A DNA stretch of 64,000 bases, taken from assembly GCA_021777555.1 (NCBI GenBank), contig JAJYDK010000012.1:22180-86179 (forward strand), given 5' to 3'. The stretch comes from Pseudomonadota bacterium (GTDB lineage Bacteria > Pseudomonadota > Gammaproteobacteria > Steroidobacterales > Steroidobacteraceae). Within the stretch, counting starts at the first letter, position 1. Each line of letters begins with the position of its first letter. Both the position numbers and the translations under genes were made by a program. The notes under the pieces are model-generated. The model was not told the DNA's origin. It saw nothing but the letters and a program-made list of their open reading frames with translations, and did not search any database. Shown here piece after piece: positions 33,914 through 45,349 of this stretch.

Positions 33914-36559
33914 GTGATGGGTATGACATCTGTCGGCAGCGCTCGGCGAGGATCTCGCGCAGATCGAACACGTACAAAGAACCATTTCCGCGCAGCATGT
34001 GCCGTGATGCTCGGCATCGCCGGCTGGATGCCGTGTCACGCCGTTCTGGCTCGCGATCCGAGCCGGGCCGTGCGTTTCGACATCCCCGCGCAGCCCCTGA
34101 GCCGGGCTCTCCTTCAGTTCGCCCGCCAGGCGCACGTGCCCATCATGTTCTCCTCGACCCTGACGCGGCGCCTGAGCGCACCAGCGCTGCACGGGAAATT
34201 GACCGAACATCAGGCGCTCCAGGAGCTCCTGAAGAACTCAGGGCTGGGCTTCGTCCGGCAAGGTGCCGCCGTCAGGATCGTGGCGTTGAAAGAGGGCAGC
34301 GACGCTGCACACCCTGCATCGAAGACTCACCCTGCGCACAAGCACCATGCCGCGCAGGCGATTGCCCTGCAGGAAGTGGTGGTCACCGGCTCCCACATCC
34401 GCGGCGGTCCGCCCCCGTCCGCGCCCATCATCACCATCACGCGCCGGGACATCGAGGAGTCCGGCTACCAATCCGTCGAGCAGGTGATGGATGCGCTGCC
34501 CGAGAACTTCGCGTCGGTGGGGTCGGGACAGACCTTTGATCTCGCCGCTCAAAACGACTCGGGCAATATATCGAATGGCGCGGCAGTGGATCTCGACGGC
34601 CTGGGGTTTGACTCCACCCTCGTGCTGGTGAACGGGCATCGTCTTGCGCCCAGTGGAACCAGAGGGGCGTTCACGGACATATCCGTCATTCCGATCAGCG
34701 CCATCAAGCGAATCGACGTGTTGACAGGCGGCGCCTCGGCCATATACGGAGCGGACGCGATCGGTGGGGTCGTGAACTACGTGCTTCGCTCGCACGAGCA
34801 GGGCGCGGAAACCGACTTGGAATATGGATCGGTGACTCAGGGCGGCCTCAGGGATTATCGCGCCTCCCAGTCCGCCGGGATGAGCTGGACGGGCGGAAAT
34901 CTGTTTGCCGCATACGAATTCCACAAGCGCACGGCGCTGTCCGCTGGCGACAGGTCCTTCAGCAGCTCGGCCGGGCCCTATTCTCTATCGCCCGATTCGA
35001 CGCAAAACAACCTTTATGTCACGGCAACCCAGAACATCGGGCGAAAGACGAGTCTGGAGGGTGACCTGTTCTATGAGCAGCGCCGTAACCAGAACGCATT
35101 CCCGTACTACGGCCTTCTGGTCGGCTCTAGCGCGCATTCGCACCAATATTCCGCGGGATTTGAGGCAATCAGAACACTGGGAAACACGTGGCACGGACAT
35201 CTGCGGCTCCAGTACGGAAAAAGCGGAAATTCGCTTGAGGACGTTTTCGGCACGGAGCAGGGCAACTCTCGATTGCTGACGGCATCCGTCGGTGCGGACG
35301 GGTCGCTATTCCACACGAGATCTGGAGCCGTACGAGGTGCAATCGGCACGGAGGTGCGTCGTGAGTCATTTTCGAGCCGTTACACGGGCGTATTCGTCTC
35401 CGAGAACAATCTGGACGAGCAGCGGACAGTTGATGCGATTTATGCGGAAACCAGGATACCGCTTCTGGCGCGGAGACCGGGCACGAGTCGCGGCCCTCTG
35501 CTCAGCGCGGATCTTGCGGGTCGATTCGAGCATTACAGCGATTTCGGGTCGTCGCTGAATCCCATGGCTGGGCTGGCGTGGAAACCGACACGAGGTCTGC
35601 GTTTTCGGGGGACGGTCAGCTCGTCATTCAGGGCGCCAAACTTCTATGAGCTGTACGGCGCGAGTCAGGCGGAGTTGTTCAATTCGCCCTATCCGGGAAG
35701 CCAGGGCGGCACGGAGGCCGTCTTGATCCGAGTTGGGGCGAACCCGGCTTTGAGGCCCGAAAAGTCCACGGAATGGACACTCGGCACGGATATTTTGCCG
35801 GCGCGGACCGGAATGGACATGAAACTGACGTACTTTCACGTTCACTTCAAGGATCGCATTGCATCTCCGAACATACCTTTGCTGAGCGCCCTAGACCAGG
35901 GGCGGACATTCGCTCCCTATCTCCAGTGGAATCCTCCCCTGAGCCAACTGGAGTCATCGGCGAGCTCGGCCGAACAGTTCTACAATATAACGCAATATCC
36001 CGGTTTTGGTCCGGCGCGCTCCCTTTCGGATGCCGTGGCCATCGCCGACGACCGGCTGCAAAACGTTGGTGTCACGAATGTCAGCGGGATCGACGCGGAT
36101 GTGAGCCAGGTGGGGCAGTTCGCTGGGGCAACCTATCGGTTGAGCGCCCAGACGACTTATCTACTCCGATACGAGAACATTTTCGTTCCAGGCGCGCTTC
36201 CGAACAACGTCCTGAGCACATTTCAGAATCCCGTTAACTTCCGCGCGAGACTCATGGCGGGGGTCACTCTCGGCAGGGTCTCCGGAAATTCAGCGCTGAA
36301 TTATACAAATCACTATACCGATACGACGCAATCGGTTCCGGTGAGGGTGGCATCATGGACGACTGTCGATCTGCAGGTTGCGTATCGGATACCGGTGTAT
36401 CGATCCTTCGGAGGATTGACGGCATCTCTTAGCTGCCAGAATTGCATGAACAGGTATCCGCCGTCTTTGAGGACGACGACATACCTGCTCGGATACGACC
36501 CGGCTAACGCCAATCCGCTGGGGCGCTTTGTGAGTCTGACTTTGCGGAAAAGATGGTAA
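33914..36559 (+). CDS. TonB-dependent receptor with N-terminal STN (signalling) domain
   Basis: RFDIPAQPLSRALLQFARQAHVPIMFSS (STN), plug domain GGASAIYGADAIGGVVNYVLR, C-terminal barrel. Confidence 0.93.
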   Translation: MMGMTSVGSARRGSRADRTRTKNHFRAACAVMLGIAGWMPCHAVLARDPSRAVRFDIPAQPLSRALLQFARQAHVPIMFSSTLTRRLSAPALHGKLTEHQALQELLKNSGLGFVRQGAAVRIVALKEGSDAAHPASKTHPAHKHHAAQAIALQEVVVTGSHIRGGPPPSAPIITITRRDIEESGYQSVEQVMDALPENFASVGSGQTFDLAAQNDSGNISNGAAVDLDGLGFDSTLVLVNGHRLAPSGTRGAFTDISVIPISAIKRIDVLTGGASAIYGADAIGGVVNYVLRSHEQGAETDLEYGSVTQGGLRDYRASQSAGMSWTGGNLFAAYEFHKRTALSAGDRSFSSSAGPYSLSPDSTQNNLYVTATQNIGRKTSLEGDLFYEQRRNQNAFPYYGLLVGSSAHSHQYSAGFEAIRTLGNTWHGHLRLQYGKSGNSLEDVFGTEQGNSRLLTASVGADGSLFHTRSGAVRGAIGTEVRRESFSSRYTGVFVSENNLDEQRTVDAIYAETRIPLLARRPGTSRGPLLSADLAGRFEHYSDFGSSLNPMAGLAWKPTRGLRFRGTVSSSFRAPNFYELYGASQAELFNSPYPGSQGGTEAVLIRVGANPALRPEKSTEWTLGTDILPARTGMDMKLTYFHVHFKDRIASPNIPLLSALDQGRTFAPYLQWNPPLSQLESSASSAEQFYNITQYPGFGPARSLSDAVAIADDRLQNVGVTNVSGIDADVSQVGQFAGATYRLSAQTTYLLRYENIFVPGALPNNVLSTFQNPVNFRARLMAGVTLGRVSGNSALNYTNHYTDTTQSVPVRVASWTTVDLQVAYRIPVYRSFGGLTASLSCQNCMNRYPPSLRTTTYLLGYDPANANPLGRFVSLTLRKRW

Positions 36560-36637
36560 CGGGGTAGTTCCCTGCAAGCGAATAAGGCAATGGTGTTCAG
36601 CGATGAGCCGTCAAACGCTGCTTGGGGTGTGAGTCTG

Positions 36638-38719
36638 ATGAGAAGAGTTTTGGGTTTGCTGTCTGCCGTCACGGCAATGTGGATGGTCGGTGGTCCGATG
36701 GTCCGCGCGAACGGTCGTGCCATTCGTCAAGAGACTACCCTGCACCGCGGGGTGATTCAGGAATTTTCCATTTCGCCGGACGGCACAAATTTGGCTGAAG
36801 TCGTGTCCAATACGGTTGCGGACCGGTCCGTCTCCTCTATCGTCATTCTAAATCTGGTGGATTCCGGCCGAGCGGGCCGAGAGATCTACTCGAGAGCCGG
36901 CGTGTCAAGCGTCATCTGGCTGACAAATCGGTCTATTGCGTTCGTCGTGCCGGGTCGAAAAGGGGGCATATTTCAGCAGAATACGCAAACCGGAAAGCTG
37001 ACGATCTTGCGGCCAAATGGTACCGGGGTCGCAAATCTGCTGTTCGACCGTCAATCGCAGTCGCTGGCCTACGAGCATGTGGCTCCCTGGTGGTGGGACG
37101 GCCGGGTGTCGGTCCGCGTAGGGAAAGACCAATGGCCGCTACAATTCATTTCACCCAAATGGGCACAGCAGGAGAGGGTTACGGTCAGGGCGCTGCGCCT
37201 CGAGGGTGGTCGAAATCGCGGACTGCACAGGAAGTATCCAGTCTCCTCCGTGGCATTCCCAGTGTCGCAAATAGCCTGGAGAAGGAATCGCCTGGTCGTA
37301 TTGCGCTCATCGCGGGGATCTTTCAAGTCGGATATCGTGGATGCGGCCACGGGGCGCGTGTTGTCAGACCGGTGGCCGCTGTATCGGGTGGGATCGATGG
37401 CGGTTTCCCCCAAGGGGCGCATTGCAGTGACCTCGATGCGGCTCTGGAAGAATCGGCCAAGACCGATGTGCGGATGCAGCGGCCGGTGGGGACTATACGT
37501 ACTGGGGCACGGGGGTGAGGTGCATGCGGTCACCGCGCTGGCCTCGGGCCAAATCGACTACATCAGTCGCCTCTGGTGGGCCGGGGAGAATCGGATTTTC
37601 GCGCAAATTCTGGGTGCCGATACACCGGGCGGCGCCCTGTACTGGAAGGTGGTGGAAGTCGATTGGCGACGAAATGCGCTGATCCGGGCCTTTCGGTGGT
37701 CAAATGGGGATCTGGGAACGCTGGATTCCCCATGTAGCCTGAGTGCGGATCGCGCTACTGCGGTTTGTATTGCGCAGACGTTGTCGTCGCCGCCCCGGCT
37801 GGTGCGCGTTGATTTGCATACGGGGGTGATGCGGACTCTCGAGAAAGTCAACCCCGGACAGCATAGGCTGGCTCTTCATTTCAAGGACATTCGGGTCAAA
37901 GCCCGCCGAAACGAGATGGCCACGGGATTTTTGGCACTACCGCGCGCGGCACGCAGCGCCGCTGTGCCGTTGGCGGTAATGCTGTATGGCTTCGACAAGG
38001 AATACTCAAGAGATGCCCAGTGGATCACGTCTTATCCTGTGGCCCGCATGGTGCACTCCGGCATCGCTGTGCTACTGCTGAATTGGCCCTACAGTCCGGA
38101 CCCGGCTCGCGAGAGCTTTCAGACTACACTAAGGGGCATGAATACGATCGTGTCGTTGATCGCAGATGCCGTGCCCGCGGTGCGGGCTACGGGAGTGAGG
38201 GTCACCAGAGCGATGATCATGGGCTGGAGTTTTGGAGGGCTTTATGCGGCTCATGCGATCCAGCGGCTTCACGAATACGTGGCGGCCCAGGTTGGGGATC
38301 CAGCGGCTTTTAACAGCACTGAGTATGCTCTGGCAGGCGGGCTGTTGGATAATGCCATCGACTGGACCCTGGGTGGGCCGCCTACCCGACGGTATATCGA
38401 TCATTACCTGACGCTGGATCCGGCCGCTGACGGCAGACCCTCCAATGGCCCGATTTTGTTGGAATTCGTGAGCCGAAATCCGGATGCCGGACAGCTCTTG
38501 CAGGAGTGGCGCGCGGACGGAACGCAGGTCGAGGCGTTCGTGTACCGCCATAGCGTCCACTGGCTCAATGTACCCGCTGAGGCTAAAATTTCCCGGGCAC
38601 GAAATCTAGATTGGGCGAAGTTGAATCTGTTTGGTCCGCAGTCCGTATCGCCGGCAGAGCTGCGCAAGGTGGGGTTGACGGTGCCTGAGAATGGGTGGTG
38701 GAGTCATCGAGCGAAATAG
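36638..38719 (+). CDS. Atxe2-type lasso peptide isopeptidase (prolyl-oligopeptidase-like)
   Basis: N-terminal propeller-like region; GWSFGG nucleophile elbow; HSVHWL; located between TonB receptor and lasso biosynthetic genes. Confidence 0.85.
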   Translation: MRRVLGLLSAVTAMWMVGGPMVRANGRAIRQETTLHRGVIQEFSISPDGTNLAEVVSNTVADRSVSSIVILNLVDSGRAGREIYSRAGVSSVIWLTNRSIAFVVPGRKGGIFQQNTQTGKLTILRPNGTGVANLLFDRQSQSLAYEHVAPWWWDGRVSVRVGKDQWPLQFISPKWAQQERVTVRALRLEGGRNRGLHRKYPVSSVAFPVSQIAWRRNRLVVLRSSRGSFKSDIVDAATGRVLSDRWPLYRVGSMAVSPKGRIAVTSMRLWKNRPRPMCGCSGRWGLYVLGHGGEVHAVTALASGQIDYISRLWWAGENRIFAQILGADTPGGALYWKVVEVDWRRNALIRAFRWSNGDLGTLDSPCSLSADRATAVCIAQTLSSPPRLVRVDLHTGVMRTLEKVNPGQHRLALHFKDIRVKARRNEMATGFLALPRAARSAAVPLAVMLYGFDKEYSRDAQWITSYPVARMVHSGIAVLLLNWPYSPDPARESFQTTLRGMNTIVSLIADAVPAVRATGVRVTRAMIMGWSFGGLYAAHAIQRLHEYVAAQVGDPAAFNSTEYALAGGLLDNAIDWTLGGPPTRRYIDHYLTLDPAADGRPSNGPILLEFVSRNPDAGQLLQEWRADGTQVEAFVYRHSVHWLNVPAEAKISRARNLDWAKLNLFGPQSVSPAELRKVGLTVPENGWWSHRAK

Positions 38720-40589
38720 AGGACTTCTGTGCGGCGGCGGGGCGGTGGTTTAGCCATCCCTGCGCCCAGGTTTCGGCTGAGATACAGGCTAACAGGGGGA
38801 AAATAGCTGTTACGGCAATTGGAGCATCCGTCCGCAGGATGGGGGCCAGCGCGTTCAGATTCAGCAAATCGTGGTTCGCCAGATGACCTTCCAGGATCGC
38901 GGGACTCAAAAACCGTGCGCTGCGGCGGAGGAGTTCAAGGGTGAAGCGTGTGGTCTGGCCCTTTTGCTCCCGGGCGACGATGGGCGCGGGCAGTATGTCG
39001 CGGAAGGCGATGCGTGCCAATCCACGTGTCTTTCCGCCAGTAGACAGCTGGTATACCGGGATTCGAAGACATAGCTCTATCAATGGCTGCGAGAGTAATG
39101 GATGGAATTCCTGCACTGTTTGCAGGCCGTAGAGCGGCCGGTGGCGGTTCAGGACTTCGGCAAGGAGGACGATTTGATATCGCTTCCCAGGCGGGAGGTG
39201 CGCGGAGGCCGTCAGCCAGGGGTGGCAAATGTACTCCGGCAAGGCCGCAGAATAGGCGTCCGAGCTCAGGAAGAGCGACTGAGCGGTCATTTTGATGGTA
39301 TCGAGAAAGTGCGCCGATGAGGAATCCCGGGCGAACGTGTCAGTCAATATGTCGACGACGATATGCGGTACGGAGCGGCCTGTCAGGCTTGTCGCCTCCA
39401 AGAGGGCGGCAAACAGTCCTCGCTCGAAGCCGTGATGGCGCCAATAATCCACCGCGCCCAGGGTGGTTTGGGCTGCCCAGAACAGGTGATCACCGCCCTG
39501 TCCGGTCCATATTGCATCCACTGGTCCTGTTCTGCACAGGGTGTTGTAGACAGGCGCGTCTAGGCCGTTGAGCAGATGAGGAATAGTGGGCTTGGCCGTG
39601 AGCGGTAGCGCGAGGCAGCTTTCGTCGAGAGCAGGCGTATCCCATGCGTGCTCGATAAGCGTGGTGCCGGTCGTGTCGGCGACCAGGCGGGCGTAGCGCC
39701 GCTCGTCCTCTCCTGGTCCAAAGGCAAATGCGTTGAGGCAGGCGACATTTGGCCGACGAGGAGCCCGCGTGAGCAGCGCCAGCACAAGTGAGGAGTCGAA
39801 TCCACCGGACAGTCGGTGTAGAACACGGTCCTGAACACCAGCCCAGGCGTTGATGCAAGACTGGGTGATGTGACGAAGGTCGCGCGACGCCTCCTCGAGG
39901 CAAGCCCCACGATGGTGTTGGGCAAGCGCTATGGGATCCCAGAGTGAGCGAACAGTTGGCGTGCTTCCGTTGGATTCCAGAGACTCCCCTGCCAGCAGCT
40001 CGTAAATGTTCTTCAGGCCGGTTTCTCGAATCTGCATCTGGCTGGAGGCGAGGAATCCGACGATGTACCTCCAGTTGATCTCGAGCGAAATGAGCGCTCC
40101 GTGCGGAGTCGAAATCTCACATAGTGGCTCTATATCCCGAACATCGGAAAACGCAATAGTGATCCCTTCGACGGTGATGTAGTAGCAAGGAATCATTCCA
40201 GAGCAGTCCCTCATGAGGAGCCAGTCTCCTGGGCGAGGGCCCGCCATAAACGCCACGTAGGCTCCCCAGTAGTGCTGGGTTAGATGTGCTCCCCAGCTGG
40301 CTTGGCAAGAATTACCAAAATACCTGTTCTCAACAATATCTCGCGGCCTGATTGGACTGTTGTCGTTTTGCCGGAAGAGAGCGCCGAGCACGAGGCCCAG
40401 TTGGTCCGGGAGCGGAAAGGCGTCCAGAATATGTGTATGAGGAGTTCGTATAAATGCAATGAGACCGTCGCGCTGCAGCGATTGGTGCCAGTGTCCGCTG
40501 GAGTGGATTCCGGACGCCAGGCGCTCTGCAAATTTCGCATGTTCTGGGCCGCTGGGCGTCCACAGCAGCGCAACGTAGGGGTATTCCAT
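38583..40589 (-). CDS. Lasso peptide macrocyclase (asparagine synthase-like, C protein)
   Basis: SGGFDSSLVLALL PP-loop, WTGQGGDHLFW, N-terminal Ntn-like region; downstream of B protein. Confidence 0.9.
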   Translation of the reverse strand: MEYPYVALLWTPSGPEHAKFAERLASGIHSSGHWHQSLQRDGLIAFIRTPHTHILDAFPLPDQLGLVLGALFRQNDNSPIRPRDIVENRYFGNSCQASWGAHLTQHYWGAYVAFMAGPRPGDWLLMRDCSGMIPCYYITVEGITIAFSDVRDIEPLCEISTPHGALISLEINWRYIVGFLASSQMQIRETGLKNIYELLAGESLESNGSTPTVRSLWDPIALAQHHRGACLEEASRDLRHITQSCINAWAGVQDRVLHRLSGGFDSSLVLALLTRAPRRPNVACLNAFAFGPGEDERRYARLVADTTGTTLIEHAWDTPALDESCLALPLTAKPTIPHLLNGLDAPVYNTLCRTGPVDAIWTGQGGDHLFWAAQTTLGAVDYWRHHGFERGLFAALLEATSLTGRSVPHIVVDILTDTFARDSSSAHFLDTIKMTAQSLFLSSDAYSAALPEYICHPWLTASAHLPPGKRYQIVLLAEVLNRHRPLYGLQTVQEFHPLLSQPLIELCLRIPVYQLSTGGKTRGLARIAFRDILPAPIVAREQKGQTTRFTLELLRRSARFLSPAILEGHLANHDLLNLNALAPILRTDAPIAVTAIFPLLACISAETWAQGWLNHRPAAAQKSSISLDDSTTHSQAPSTPPCAALPAIRTADQTDSTSPNLDFVPGKF

Positions 40590-40598
40590 GCGCGGATC

Positions 40599-41312
40599 TC
40601 ACACGGTCATGATGGGCGTAAAGCCGCAGACGTGATCCAGGTGATCGTTCAGAACCAAGGTACCGGCCTGGACCCAGCAGTGCGCATTGAAAGGATCCGC
40701 CTGAACCGCAAACACCCAGTCGGGGAATAACTGGAACCCAGACAGAAACCGGAGTAGTGCCAGGGAGTCGAATAGGCAGCAATAGTTGCGGGGAAAGAAC
40801 GGGCGGATCTTCAGAAAGGCCGCTGTCAGGCGGGCGGCCTCGTTGCAGTCCGTCGGGCCCGAGATGGCGGCCGAGTACTTAGTCTTTTGCACTGCCCTGA
40901 CGATTCTCGAGATCGATGCCGTCTGCAATTCCCAGCTTGCGCGAGATAGCGCGGTCGTCGCGAGAAAAAAAGGGCGGACAGATCCTCCCTCTAGGGCTTC
41001 AGGTGATATTGATGCGAGATCCTGAGCGGCCGCTGCAGCTCTGTGCGGCAATTCAATGGTTGTGGGGGCGCGTTCGGTCAGGATGCCTGCTCTCAGCAAC
41101 TCGGCGGCGAGTGTGACCGTTGAGTCTGGGGGTGGAGTGCTCGGTGATGGACCACACCGCGTCAATGACCAATTCTGGATCCATGGAGTGAGTGCTTCAA
41201 TGTCCTCGCGGGGGACGGAGAAGTAGCTATCACGTTGCAAGTCTAGGAACATGCAGTGGCGCCCGCTGAGGCAGGCGAATACCTGCGGAGAAAGGTGGTA
41301 CTTGGTTTCCAC
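40599..41312 (-). CDS. Lasso peptide biosynthesis B protein (RRE-like N-terminus + B2 transglutaminase-like protease)
   Basis: RNYCCLFDSLALLRFL...DWVFAVQADPFNAHCWVQAGTLVLND; GTG start at 41312 (AGGA upstream) favoured over GTG at 41354, which lies within a hairpin. Confidence 0.85.
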   Translation of the reverse strand: METKYHLSPQVFACLSGRHCMFLDLQRDSYFSVPREDIEALTPWIQNWSLTRCGPSPSTPPPDSTVTLAAELLRAGILTERAPTTIELPHRAAAAAQDLASISPEALEGGSVRPFFLATTALSRASWELQTASISRIVRAVQKTKYSAAISGPTDCNEAARLTAAFLKIRPFFPRNYCCLFDSLALLRFLSGFQLFPDWVFAVQADPFNAHCWVQAGTLVLNDHLDHVCGFTPIMTV

Positions 41313-41332
41313 CGAGCATTCCTGATCGAGAA

Positions 41333-41362
41333 GGCGGTGCGCGGCTGACGCCACGCACCGCC
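41333..41362 (-). promoter_or_regulatory. Intercistronic hairpin between lasso precursor and B gene
   Basis: GGCGGTGCG-C-GGC tgac GCC-A-CGCACCGCC: 12 bp paired, one mismatch, 4-nt loop. Confidence 0.7.
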
Positions 41363-41372
41363 AGTCTCGAGG

Positions 41373-41465
41373 CTAGCCCACCTGCTGGCCCGGCTGGCCC
41401 GCTTCGACGAGCGCGGGAATGAACCCCTTCGTCTCCTGCTTCACACTGCCTTCGTAGTGAATCAT
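41373..41465 (-). CDS. Lasso peptide precursor (A): MIHYEGSVKQETK/GFIPALVEAGQPGQQVG
   Basis: Hand translation; AGGAG RBS 5' of ATG; in-frame TGA just upstream; Thr at leader -2, core Gly1 and Glu8; immediately 5' of B and C genes. Confidence 0.88.
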   Translation of the reverse strand: MIHYEGSVKQETKGFIPALVEAGQPGQQVG

Positions 41466-41753
41466 GGTCTTCTCCTGTCACGAGATGATGGTTGGTTGTG
41501 CCTGCCACTCACGGGTTGGCGCCGGCTCCCGTGATGGTGCGAGTCAGCATGCGAAGAGTTGGAGATCGCGTCAACGGGGCCTGCGTGTTGTGCAAGCTGT
41601 GCTCACGCATGATGCGAGCGGACGAGGCACTCGATAGAGGGTGCGGATGGTCCGCCGCGTGGATCCATCTTGCGTGGGAAATTCTTACGAGATATCACTG
41701 GCTTGGCGTCACCCAACCTGGGTGGCATCGCCTGGGTGAAGAGGGCTTGCGTG

Positions 41754-43568
41754 ATGGAATGCGGGCGAAAGAGCGCGCGAGTGGGTCTGCGCGAGGTCGT
41801 GCGGATGGTGGGCTCGGAGCTTGCGCCGCCCGTCAAGGCGCGGCTCCTTGGCGTGCTGGCGCTCGTGGTCACCGCGTCGGTCTTGACTGCGATCGCACCA
41901 GTGGCGTTGAAGCTCGTCGTCGATCGGTTGACCGGTCAAAGAGGCGGCTGGTCGGTTTCTCCGCTGCTTCTTGTGACGCTGTACGTGATCGCGTTATGGC
42001 TTGGGAGGACTTCGAATGAGGTGCGCAGACTGTTCTTCGCCCAGGCGGAGCAACGCATCTTCCGGACCCTCAGCGAGCGGCTGTTCTCGCACCTGATGCG
42101 CCTGCCGCTGCGGTATCACCTCGACAGGAAGACGGGTGCTGTCACCCAGACGCTGGACAACGGTCTGGAGGGGATGCGCATCATTCTGCATCACCTGGTT
42201 TTCACGTACGTCCCGGTCGCCGTGGAACTCGGCACCATTTTGGTGGTGCTCGTCGATGTGGTGACGCCGCCGTTTCTATTCCTGTTCTGCGCCGCGCTCT
42301 TGTGCTACCTGGCGGTGTTTTCATACTCCGCGGCCACGATCACCCCCGCGGCCCGAGGGGCGTCCTCGGCGCGGGTGGAAGCATCGGCGGCGATGACGGA
42401 TGGTCTGCTGAACTACGAGACGGTGAAGTGCTTCACCGCCGAGGCGCTGGTCGAGGGCCGCGTGTCCCGCGCGCTCGGACGGTCGGAGGCCCAGTGGGTC
42501 GGGTTCTACCGCCGCTATGCGCTGAACGGGGTCCTGATCGCGGGCATATTCGCCGCCTTCATGGCATGCACCGTCTTCTATGCCACGGTGGAGGTGCTGC
42601 GCGGGCGTATGACGGTGGGCGATTTCGTTCTGATCAATGCCTACATGCTTCAGATCGTGCGTCCGGTGGAGATGCTGGGTTACGCCATGCAGGGGCTCTC
42701 GCACGGGGTGGCCATGCTCGAGAAGCTGGTGCAGCTCTTGCGGGAGCCGACGGAGGCGGGGCTTCAGATTGGGTCCGTGTCCGGGTCCGGTGCCCCCGCG
42801 GGTGCGGGCTCCCTCGAATTCGAGGCCGTGAGCGTTTCGTACGGGCCCGGGCGCGCGGTGCTCAACGGGGTGAGTTTCAGGATCGTCGCGGGGCGCACAC
42901 TCGGCATCGTGGGTGCGAGCGGGTCGGGAAAATCGACGATCGTTCGTCTTTTGATCCGGCTGCTGGAGCCGGATTCCGGGCGTATTTTGCTCGATGGCGT
43001 GGAGATTGCGGACCTGAGGCTCGAGGACCTGCGCCGCTCCATTGCGGTCGTGCCGCAGGAGACGACGCTCTTCGATGACACGCTGAGCTACAACATCGGA
43101 TTGGGGCGCGCGGGAGCCGGACCGCAGGAGATCGAGGCGGCCGCCCGGATGGCGCGATTGCACGAGTACATCGTGACGCTGCCCGAGGGATACGAGACGG
43201 TGGTGGGCGAGAGGGGAGTGAAACTCTCCGGCGGGGAGCGGCAGCGCGTGTCGATTGCCCGCGCCGTGCTCAAGTCGCCGCGAATCTACGTGTTCGATGA
43301 GGCGACGTCCTCGCTCGACAGTCGAACCGAGCAGGGGATCCTGAGCAGCCTGAGAGTGATTTCCAGGCGCAGCTCGACGCTGGTCATTGCGCATCGACTT
43401 TCGACGGTCGTGCACGCTGATGAGATCCTCGTGCTCGAGCAGGGCCGGATCGCGGAGCGGGGCACTCACCAGTCACTTCTGCGGGAGAACGGACGCTATG
43501 CCGCCTCATGGAGGGCGCAGCGAGATGGCGCGGCAGTGGCGCGAGCGGAATCAGGAAGACGTCTTTGA
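41754..43568 (+). CDS. ABC transporter (TM+NBD, ATM1/MsbA-like), probable lasso peptide exporter
   Basis: Six TM helices; GASGSGKSTIVRLL, LSGGERQRVSIARA, VFDEATSSLD. Confidence 0.92.
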   Translation: MECGRKSARVGLREVVRMVGSELAPPVKARLLGVLALVVTASVLTAIAPVALKLVVDRLTGQRGGWSVSPLLLVTLYVIALWLGRTSNEVRRLFFAQAEQRIFRTLSERLFSHLMRLPLRYHLDRKTGAVTQTLDNGLEGMRIILHHLVFTYVPVAVELGTILVVLVDVVTPPFLFLFCAALLCYLAVFSYSAATITPAARGASSARVEASAAMTDGLLNYETVKCFTAEALVEGRVSRALGRSEAQWVGFYRRYALNGVLIAGIFAAFMACTVFYATVEVLRGRMTVGDFVLINAYMLQIVRPVEMLGYAMQGLSHGVAMLEKLVQLLREPTEAGLQIGSVSGSGAPAGAGSLEFEAVSVSYGPGRAVLNGVSFRIVAGRTLGIVGASGSGKSTIVRLLIRLLEPDSGRILLDGVEIADLRLEDLRRSIAVVPQETTLFDDTLSYNIGLGRAGAGPQEIEAAARMARLHEYIVTLPEGYETVVGERGVKLSGGERQRVSIARAVLKSPRIYVFDEATSSLDSRTEQGILSSLRVISRRSSTLVIAHRLSTVVHADEILVLEQGRIAERGTHQSLLRENGRYAASWRAQRDGAAVARAESGRRL

Positions 43569-43574
43569 GGTCGG

Positions 43575-44459
43575 TTAGACGGCTCCTGCTTCGAGGATCC
43601 GCACCATGGCTCGCTTGAGCGCCTCGCGGCGCTCCGGACTCAGGAGGGTCTTCGGGATGATGTACAGGACATGCTCGAGCCGATCCTGTTCGTGAAAGAG
43701 CACGCCATGGGCGGCGCCATGGACGGGGATGTTGCGGTACGAGCGGTGATTTCTTGGCTTTCCTCCGGATGGGGTGATGAGCAGCTCGTAGATCGCCCGG
43801 GCTGAAAGGCGGGAGGACCTGTTTGAGATTGCACGGGCCCGGGCGGAGATGACATCTCGCCTGTCGTCCTCGTTCCACAGCTTGAACAGCTCGACCCCCC
43901 AGCCTTCGCGGATGTCGGCGGAAGATGGGAAGGCGCTGACGATGAGGCTCGGCAGTTGCGCCAGCATCAGCAGCCGTGAGACGGCGGAGTGGGAGAGACC
44001 GAAGGCCCGGGCGAGGTCCTCCTGGGAGGGATAGGTGTCCGAGCGGAACGCCCGCCAGAGAATCTGTCCGCGCACATACGGACTGTCTTCTTCCCGGAGG
44101 AGGTTTTCCTCGTACATCGCGACGTAGGCGTCGGCATCGCTCATCTGTCGAACTTCCACGAGAAGATCGCGTCCGAGGGTGCGGGCGACGGCGTGCCGCC
44201 GCGCACCGCAGATGATCTCGATGTCGCACTCGGGGTCCTCGCTCACCGGGCGACCCAAGGCGGGTTGATGCTGGCCATTGCGGGCAATCGACTCGCGCAG
44301 CGATTTGCAGGCGTCGTCGGTCAGCTGCTCCTCGGGACGGCTGTGCTGGATCCATACACGGCAGCGGAATGGGCTCACGATCCGGCGCGCTCCGCGGCGC
44401 TCGGCCGTTGGTTCCTGCCGAGATGCCCCGCGCATCAGGCGCTCTGCCCCGACACTCAC
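43575..44459 (-). CDS. Orphan ParB/RepB/KorB-like DNA-binding protein
   Basis: IICGARRHAVAR, EENLLREEDSPY, HTH (SQEDLARAFGLSHSAVSRLLMLAQLP); GTG start overlaps the upstream stop. Confidence 0.85.
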   Translation of the reverse strand: MSVGAERLMRGASRQEPTAERRGARRIVSPFRCRVWIQHSRPEEQLTDDACKSLRESIARNGQHQPALGRPVSEDPECDIEIICGARRHAVARTLGRDLLVEVRQMSDADAYVAMYEENLLREEDSPYVRGQILWRAFRSDTYPSQEDLARAFGLSHSAVSRLLMLAQLPSLIVSAFPSSADIREGWGVELFKLWNEDDRRDVISARARAISNRSSRLSARAIYELLITPSGGKPRNHRSYRNIPVHGAAHGVLFHEQDRLEHVLYIIPKTLLSPERREALKRAMVRILEAGAV

Positions 44460-45349
44460 GCGCCCGCCCGATAGAAGACCTTCAGCTCTTCGGCAATCGC
44501 CTCCGGGAGGGCGTCAAGCGCCGGGAGGGTGTGCGAGGTGCTCTCAAAGAGCACTGCGGGATTCTGTCCCTCGTACCCGCCCAGGTTTGGCCGATGGATG
44601 CGGTAACCGAGCAGGTCGCGCAGCGCGCTCGGGAACTGCCGGGCGAGCTGCGGGGGATAGCTGAGGAAGGCGTTTTCGTACTGCTTCAGCCAGCCCAGGC
44701 AGTAGCTCACGATGAGCCCGGTTCGCGGCGCGTCCGCGCGGTTGGCGCCGCCACAGTGGGTGAGTGAGCCCAGGTAGACCAGTGCCGACCCTCTGGGCAT
44801 TTCCGCCACCGTGGCCCGTGCAAGGTCGAGTTCGCGCGTGGGCCCGTCCATCGCGGCGTGAGGCCAGAGGAGCGTGGCGCCATTTCGGGCGGTGAAGTCC
44901 GTGAGCGCCCACATCACGTTGACCAGGTATTCGATACCGCTCTTCGGGCAGGGCCACATTTCCTCATCCCGATGGGGCACCTGCTGCCGCTCTCCCGGAT
45001 GCAGCCGCACCGCCTGAGTCAGGTTGAGCTGATACCAGTCACAGTGCGGTCCGAGCACACCGTCCATGAGGGACAGCATCAGGGGATGCAGCGCCAGGGC
45101 GTGAGTGCTCGCAGACTTGAGCAGCACGGAGCCGAATCGAGTGGTACTCCAGCCGTAGAAATCACCCTGACAACGCGGCGTCGCCGCGAACCAGGGCTCG
45201 AGCTCCTCACACAGGTGCTCTACGGTCTGCTCCGGCAGCAGCCTGTCGAGTATGACGTAGCCGTTCGCGCGCAGCAGCTCGAGCGGTGTGATTCCAGGGT
45301 CGCTCGCGGCAGAGGCGTCAATGCGGATCGACGATGGGGCGTCAGCCAT
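44456..45349 (-). CDS. Phytanoyl-CoA dioxygenase (PhyH)-family Fe(II)/2OG oxygenase
   Basis: NGYVILDRLLP; HRD facial-triad motif (VPHRDEEMW) with distal H (SLTHCGGANRADAPRTGL). Confidence 0.85.
   Translation of the reverse strand: MADAPSSIRIDASAASDPGITPLELLRANGYVILDRLLPEQTVEHLCEELEPWFAATPRCQGDFYGWSTTRFGSVLLKSASTHALALHPLMLSLMDGVLGPHCDWYQLNLTQAVRLHPGERQQVPHRDEEMWPCPKSGIEYLVNVMWALTDFTARNGATLLWPHAAMDGPTRELDLARATVAEMPRGSALVYLGSLTHCGGANRADAPRTGLIVSYCLGWLKQYENAFLSYPPQLARQFPSALRDLLGYRIHRPNLGGYEGQNPAVLFESTSHTLPALDALPEAIAEELKVFYRAGA

What the first reader, a model, noticed from the sequence alone, without database searches (positions are those of the whole stretch)
41373..41465. Unannotated 30-aa lasso peptide precursor with an unusually short leader
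Seen: complement(41373..41465) translates to MIHYEGSVKQETKGFIPALVEAGQPGQQVG, with AGGAG just upstream of the ATG and an in-frame TGA 15 nt before it. It lies directly 5' of the B and C genes on the same strand and is too short for the supplied ORF track. Established: proteobacterial lasso precursors have a conserved Thr at leader position -2 and a core with Gly1 and an acidic residue at 7-9. Inference: core GFIPALVEAGQPGQQVG forms a Gly1-Glu8 eight-residue ring, giving a neutral monoisotopic mass of about 1648.86 ([M+H]+ about 1649.86), by hand summation of residue masses. The 13-aa leader is short and cannot be extended because of the upstream stop.
Basis: partly seen in the sequence, partly recalled or inferred. 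Interest (0 to 1): 0.95.

Follow-up and report, generated by a model that had tools for sequence, protein, structure and literature searches.

The report
Short-leader lasso peptide precursor gene
This tiny, unannotated gene almost certainly encodes the starting material of a knotted "lasso" peptide; its unusually short 13-residue leader is real, but it is shared by a whole branch of uncultured relatives and by several other bacterial groups rather than being unique to this genome.

Summary
The ORF is exactly as described: 41465-41373 (-), MIHYEGSVKQETK|GFIPALVEAGQPGQQVG, AGGAG 6 nt before the ATG, in-frame TGA 15 nt upstream, 18 nt before the B ORF. The predicted mass is right (1648.857; [M+H]+ 1649.865). 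It is the only ORF of its kind in the 64-kb window (0.03 expected by chance). The decisive evidence is comparative. Nine related B genes have a precursor at the same place with a 12-residue leader; across the ten, Gly-8, Val-6, Thr-2, Lys-1, Gly1 and Glu8 are invariant, the leader is conserved and the core diverges. Glu8 is the only acidic residue in the core, so a Gly1-Glu8 ring is essentially forced. The short leader is therefore genuine, but a lineage trait: 12-15-residue leaders also occur in Steroidobacter, Peristeroidobacter, Woeseiaceae and some alphaproteobacteria. It matches the C-terminal part of longer leaders, the part known to suffice for microcin J25. The cluster (A-B-C, convergent isopeptidase, TonB receptor, divergent ABC transporter) is the known isopeptidase type. 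New member of a known kind. Side finding: LuxR-LuxI-PhyH-ParB genes sit beside the cluster, here and in relatives. Threading, export and function are untested.

The parts
41373..41465 (-). lasso precursor gene A (30 aa, includes TAG stop)
   Evidence: ATG with AGGAG 6 nt upstream; conserved in nine related loci
41427..41465 (-). leader, 13 aa MIHYEGSVKQETK; Gly-8, Val-6, Thr-2, Lys-1 invariant among ten precursors
41376..41426 (-). core, 17 aa GFIPALVEAGQPGQQVG; predicted Gly1-Glu8 macrolactam (Glu8 is the only acidic residue)
41472..41476 (-). ribosome-binding site AGGAG
40599..41354 (-). B gene: fused RRE + B2 leader peptidase (likely start GTG 41312)
   Evidence: (NF033537 above cut-off, PF13471), AlphaFold model pLDDT 92 and match of the N-terminal domain to TbiB1-leader structures, prob 0.97
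38583..40589 (-). C gene: asparagine-synthetase-like lasso cyclase, SGGFDS motif at residue 261
36590..38719 (+). lasso isopeptidase (Ser 547 in GWSFGG), 3' end overlaps C gene antisense
   Evidence: NF033523, below cut-off; 5jrk/5jrl
33914..36559 (+). TonB-dependent outer-membrane receptor
41754..43568 (+). divergent ABC transporter (permease-ATPase fusion), conserved beside the cluster in the genus
43575..44459 (-). ParB-like protein, linked module (role unproven)
44456..45349 (-). PhyH-family 2-oxoglutarate oxygenase, linked module
45342..46091 (-). LuxI-family AHL synthase, linked module
46217..47008 (-). LuxR-family AHL receptor, linked module

Best explanation
The ORF is the substrate of the B and C enzymes encoded next to it. 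The 13-aa leader binds the RRE half of B, Thr-2 positions the K-1|G1 bond in the cysteine-protease half, B releases the 17-aa core, and C activates Glu8 with ATP and joins it to the amine of Gly1, giving an 8-residue ring with a 9-residue tail (neutral mass 1648.86). The leader is short because only the recognition segment found at the C-terminal end of longer proteobacterial leaders is kept. The product is probably exported by the divergent ABC transporter, retaken through the TonB receptor and opened by the isopeptidase. Shown: gene, leader/core conservation, enzyme families. Inferred: binding, cleavage, ring, threading, transport.
For: Ten precursors (window plus nine) lie just 5' of B with invariant Gly-8, Val-6, Thr-2, Lys-1, Gly1, Glu8; codon differences synonymous/nonsynonymous are 153/137 in the leader against 64/243 in the ring, as expected for a constrained leader and a diversifying core. 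A model of these precursors finds the ORF and its same-genus counterparts at E 1e-12 to 2e-15 and nothing else convincing (best other hit E 0.07) in 37 genomes. B and C families, B fold and RRE match. A-B-C-isopeptidase-TonB plus divergent ABC gene order recurs in the genus. For microcin J25, removal of up to 28 of 37 leader residues still gave product, and a model places leader residues -12 to -10 on the RRE sheet and Thr-2 in a pocket (PMC11420955).
Against: No product has been seen. The tail (AGQPGQQVG) has no aromatic or otherwise bulky plug residue, so threading may be weak or heat-labile. The window leader carries Lys at -5 and Glu at -9 where relatives have Ser and Leu/His/Tyr, and one extra residue. 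C and isopeptidase score below the curated NCBIfam cut-offs.
Confidence: 0.92

Rival explanations
1. The peptide is processed by B and C but gives an unthreaded branched-cyclic peptide, or a lasso that unthreads readily, because the tail has only Gln/Val as possible plugs.
For: Core sequence lacks Phe/Tyr/Trp/Arg in the tail; several relatives have Phe or Tyr after the conserved Gly13.
Against: An 8-residue ring can be held by Gln or Lys in at least one described lasso peptide (benenodin-1; own knowledge). The linked isopeptidase family is reported to act only on threaded lassos (PMC13352647).
Confidence: 0.12
2. Another ORF in the A-B region is the real substrate, or the leader is longer through another start.
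For: A 92-aa GTG ORF (41230-41508) overlaps in another frame.
Against: In-frame TGA 15 nt upstream of the ATG; strong SD only at this ATG; nine homologues conserve this frame and start; no other ORF in the intergenic region has the pattern with an SD.
Confidence: 0.03
3. The cluster is a decaying relic and A is no longer processed.
For: Window leader deviates from relatives at -5 and -9.
Against: A, B, C, isopeptidase, TonB and ABC frames are all intact, and key residues of B, C and isopeptidase are present.
Confidence: 0.04

Closest known systems
Isopeptidase-type proteobacterial lasso clusters (astexin, sphingopyxin, xanthomonin type)
   Same: Fused B, C, convergent isopeptidase, TonB receptor; leader end G-x-[AV]-S-x-[ED]-T-x|G
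   Different: Leader 13 aa, against 23-29 for the xanthomonad, rhodanobacter and sphingomonad loci compared here; divergent ABC transporter; unrelated core
Microcin J25
   Same: Gly1-Glu8 ring, Thr-2, Lys-1, fused B protein
   Different: 37-aa leader, no isopeptidase in its four-gene cluster; only laboratory-truncated leaders reach this length (PMC11420955)
Metanodin (soil metagenome, Steroidobacterales; PMC12670498)
   Same: Classical A-B-C with isopeptidase in a gammaproteobacterial MAG lineage; A gene missed by antiSMASH
   Different: Metanodin core starts with Asn; window core with Gly. Its leader length could not be compared (figure only)
Lasso loci of Steroidobacter agaridevorans and Peristeroidobacter agariperforans (L061, L070)
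   Same: 12-aa leader M(I/V)KLGKVSKETK with strong SD
   Different: B proteins in another clade; Glu at 9, 9-residue ring

Membership tests
Lasso peptide biosynthetic cluster | Precursor with Thr at -2 of the leader | tested here: met
   T-2 in window and all nine related precursors
Lasso peptide biosynthetic cluster | Core residue 1 small with Asp/Glu at 7-9 | tested here: met
   Gly1 and Glu8, both invariant in ten precursors
Lasso peptide biosynthetic cluster | B protein: RRE plus cysteine peptidase | tested here: met
   NF033537 above cut-off; Cys178 and His210 invariant in 36 B proteins; RRE fold match to TbiB1 at Foldseek prob 0.97 though E 0.08
Lasso peptide biosynthetic cluster | C protein: asparagine-synthetase-like cyclase | tested here: met
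   PF00733, SGGFDS; lasso cyclase model NF033535 hit only below its cut-off
Lasso peptide biosynthetic cluster | Threaded, isopeptide-closed product | not testable with these tools
   needs expression and MS/NMR
Isopeptidase-type lasso cluster | Dedicated lasso isopeptidase | tested here: inconclusive
   NF033523 72.9 bits against a cut-off of 400; best and only PDB sequence hit is 5jrk/5jrl, identified from own knowledge as the sphingopyxin isopeptidase; active-site Ser motif present
Isopeptidase-type lasso cluster | TonB-dependent receptor adjacent | tested here: met
   33914-36559, PF00593/PF07715
Typical lasso precursor | Leader of 20-40 aa (descriptive, not definitional) | tested here: not met
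   13 aa here, 12 aa in relatives; range quoted in PMC13352647

The most novel reading that the evidence does not exclude
The locus is an AHL quorum-sensing-controlled lasso system with a naturally minimal leader: LuxR-LuxI, the PhyH oxygenase and the ParB-like protein are functional parts that time its production, and 12-13 residues are all the leader the fused B protein of this lineage can read.
Probability: 0.3. Interest if true: 0.6.

Novelty: new member of a known kind. Interest (0 to 1): 0.38.

Why it matters
It adds a testable lasso peptide with an exact predicted mass. It also shows that natural lasso precursors with 12-13-residue leaders are common in several lineages, so mining tools or ORF tracks that drop ORFs of 30 aa or less will miss them. 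Natural minimal leaders give a direct test of how little leader the RRE needs, a question so far approached by truncating microcin J25. Cultured Steroidobacter and Peristeroidobacter strains with the same leader type make the question accessible.

Tried and rejected
Pfam and NCBIfam have no family for the 30-aa ORF. Sequence search of the B profile against PDB found nothing; fold search was needed. A search for a precursor of the second B'C' cluster by shared small ORFs gave only out-of-frame coding noise. A search for the relatives' luxI-promoter palindrome beside A in the window found none. A single origin of the short leader is not established: the B tree needs about 4 changes, one origin is not excluded. 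The nearest metagenome hit (L130, 50% B identity) has no recognisable precursor in the 253 nt before B.

Full report
OBSERVATION. The minus strand reads ...TGA CAG GAG AAG ACC ATG ATT CAC..., so the ATG at 41465 has AGGAG 6 nt upstream and an in-frame TGA 15 nt upstream. The ORF 41465-41373 translates to MIHYEGSVKQETKGFIPALVEAGQPGQQVG and ends 18 nt before the B ORF. In the whole window exactly one ATG ORF of 24-60 aa combines a Thr-x-Gly...Asp/Glu lasso pattern with a well-placed AGGAG/GGAGG; first-order Markov randomisations give 0.03 per 64 kb.

SURROUNDINGS. B (40599-41354, -) carries the lasso B2 domain above its curated cut-off. An AlphaFold model of B is confident (mean pLDDT 92.4), and its N-terminal part matches the leader-bound RRE protein TbiB1 (Foldseek prob 0.97, though E about 0.08). 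C (38583-40589, -) is an asparagine-synthetase homologue with SGGFDS. Convergent to it lies an S9-type hydrolase whose only PDB sequence relative is 5jrk/5jrl, the sphingopyxin isopeptidase (identity of the entry from own knowledge) and which hits the Atxe2 isopeptidase model below its cut-off. A TonB receptor follows. An ABC transporter diverges from A on the other strand. The same order recurs in other genomes of the genus.

HOMOLOGUES. B genes of the same genus and of public genomes have, at the same place and with the same AGGAG context, short precursors: MQYLGSVSEQTK|GSEIGGSEVLGLPNTRQAS, MTYHGSVSQQTK|GIQPGVGEHKLRPGYAA, MMYYGSVSQETK|GLKADTIESNGEVGVQQR, MQYLGNVSTETK|GIVGQYPEGNLNFGAEQA, MQYLGNVSTQTK|GTPGSALEQGVIVGFDPR, MQNLGHVSTETK|GTPGSATEQGAIVGFDPR, MTYHGSVSYDTK|GIDTQQTESLGVPGYQF, MMYHGSVSQETK|GLKADAIESNGEVGVQHP, MQYHGSVSAETK|GFAPETIENGVELGQKQL (in the first and the seventh an upstream ATG two codons earlier is also possible, giving 14 aa). 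With the window that is ten. Gly-8, Val-6, Thr-2, Lys-1, Gly1 and Glu8 never vary. Codon differences are 153 synonymous to 137 nonsynonymous in the last ten leader codons, against 64 to 243 in the ring. These are raw pairwise counts over related sequences, not a formal rate test, but the contrast is the one expected of a recognised leader and a diversifying product. In the window Glu8 is the only acidic residue of the core, so the ring size is not a choice among alternatives.

THE SHORT LEADER. A 2026 review gives 20-40 aa for lasso leaders (PMC13352647). Start sites judged by Shine-Dalgarno match give 12-15 aa here, in four Steroidobacter/Peristeroidobacter genomes, in some Woeseiaceae MAGs, and in alphaproteobacteria such as Emcibacter and Eilatimonas (some with weak SD), against 23-29 aa in xanthomonad, rhodanobacter and sphingomonad loci. 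Two metagenome loci have 13-aa leaders like the window's. In a tree of B proteins the window's clade (10 rows, support 100/99) has only short leaders; over the whole tree about four changes are needed and one origin is not excluded. Long and short leaders share the same last 11 or so residues (e.g. IELGVASVETQ versus MIKLGKVSKETK), so the short class lacks only the N-terminal extension. This fits microcin J25, where up to 28 of 37 leader residues can be removed and a model puts residues -12 to -10 on the RRE sheet with Thr-2 in a pocket (PMC11420955). Whether someone has already remarked on this class I could not establish; the open-access searches did not show it.

MECHANISM AND LIMITS. Leader binding to the RRE, cleavage at K-1|G1 and closure Gly1-Glu8 follow from family knowledge; none was tested. 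The tail has only Gln and Val as possible plugs; relatives place Phe, Tyr, Gln or Val after a conserved Gly near position 13-14, so Gln14/Gln15 are my guess, and the knot may be heat-labile. Recapture through TonB and linearisation by the isopeptidase is the current view for such clusters (own knowledge).

A LINKED QUORUM-SENSING MODULE. LuxR, LuxI, PhyH and ParB genes (43575-47008, -) lie beyond the ABC gene. LuxI homologues (57-63% identity) occur in four other genomes of those searched, each beside PhyH (76-81%) and, where the contig allows, ParB and an ABC transporter. In L122 the module is contiguous with another lasso A-B-C. No paper retrieved describes an AHL-linked lasso cluster, but the library is partial. 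PhyH is more conserved than LuxI or ParB although the linked cores differ completely, so it probably acts on something other than the core; that is inference.

VERDICT. The finding is real and its reading is sound. It is a new member of a known kind, with a leader length that is outside the textbook range yet shared by a sizeable group.

Noticed in passing
window 43575-47008; L122, L123, L124, L125, L129: LuxR-LuxI-PhyH-ParB (plus ABC transporter) module conserved in five genomes of the genus and contiguous with lasso A-B-C in the window and L122; PhyH is the most conserved member.
   Followed up: partly
L122:7807-7902 (-): Predicted precursor MITLGKVTTETQ|NAKISFTPEPVSPQQYLPL: 12-aa leader, Asn at core position 1, Glu9, 19-aa core, a candidate second Asn1 lasso after metanodin.
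   Followed up: partly
L063 and L064, just upstream of B: Genomes of the isolates Peristeroidobacter soli JW-3 (MIKLGKVSQETR|DTKFLTDPETDGLPQIFF) and Steroidobacter gossypii S1-65 (MIKLGKVSEATR|TGKDSIFTEIADVPQFSL) predict Asp or Thr at core position 1.
   Followed up: no
L034 (G000:C110), also L031, L032, L033, L039, L040: A second lasso-like B'-C'-TonB set in this genome and its relatives, often back-to-back with the first across the ABC gene, has no recognisable precursor next to B'.
   Followed up: partly
window 38583-38719; L043, L044, L047, L050: The 3' ends of the C and isopeptidase genes overlap antisense by about 100-140 bp in the window and relatives.
   Followed up: no
L122:11578-12558 (-), L123:9220-10233 (+): Conserved ~330-aa gene between ParB and the ABC gene; looks like a REP-associated transposase by eye, but no Pfam match. 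No such gene lies between ParB and ABC in the window.
   Followed up: partly
L055, L057, L058, L060: Woeseiaceae precursors with 12-aa leaders whose cores hold two cysteines (GCG...C), suggesting a disulfide-bearing lasso.
   Followed up: no
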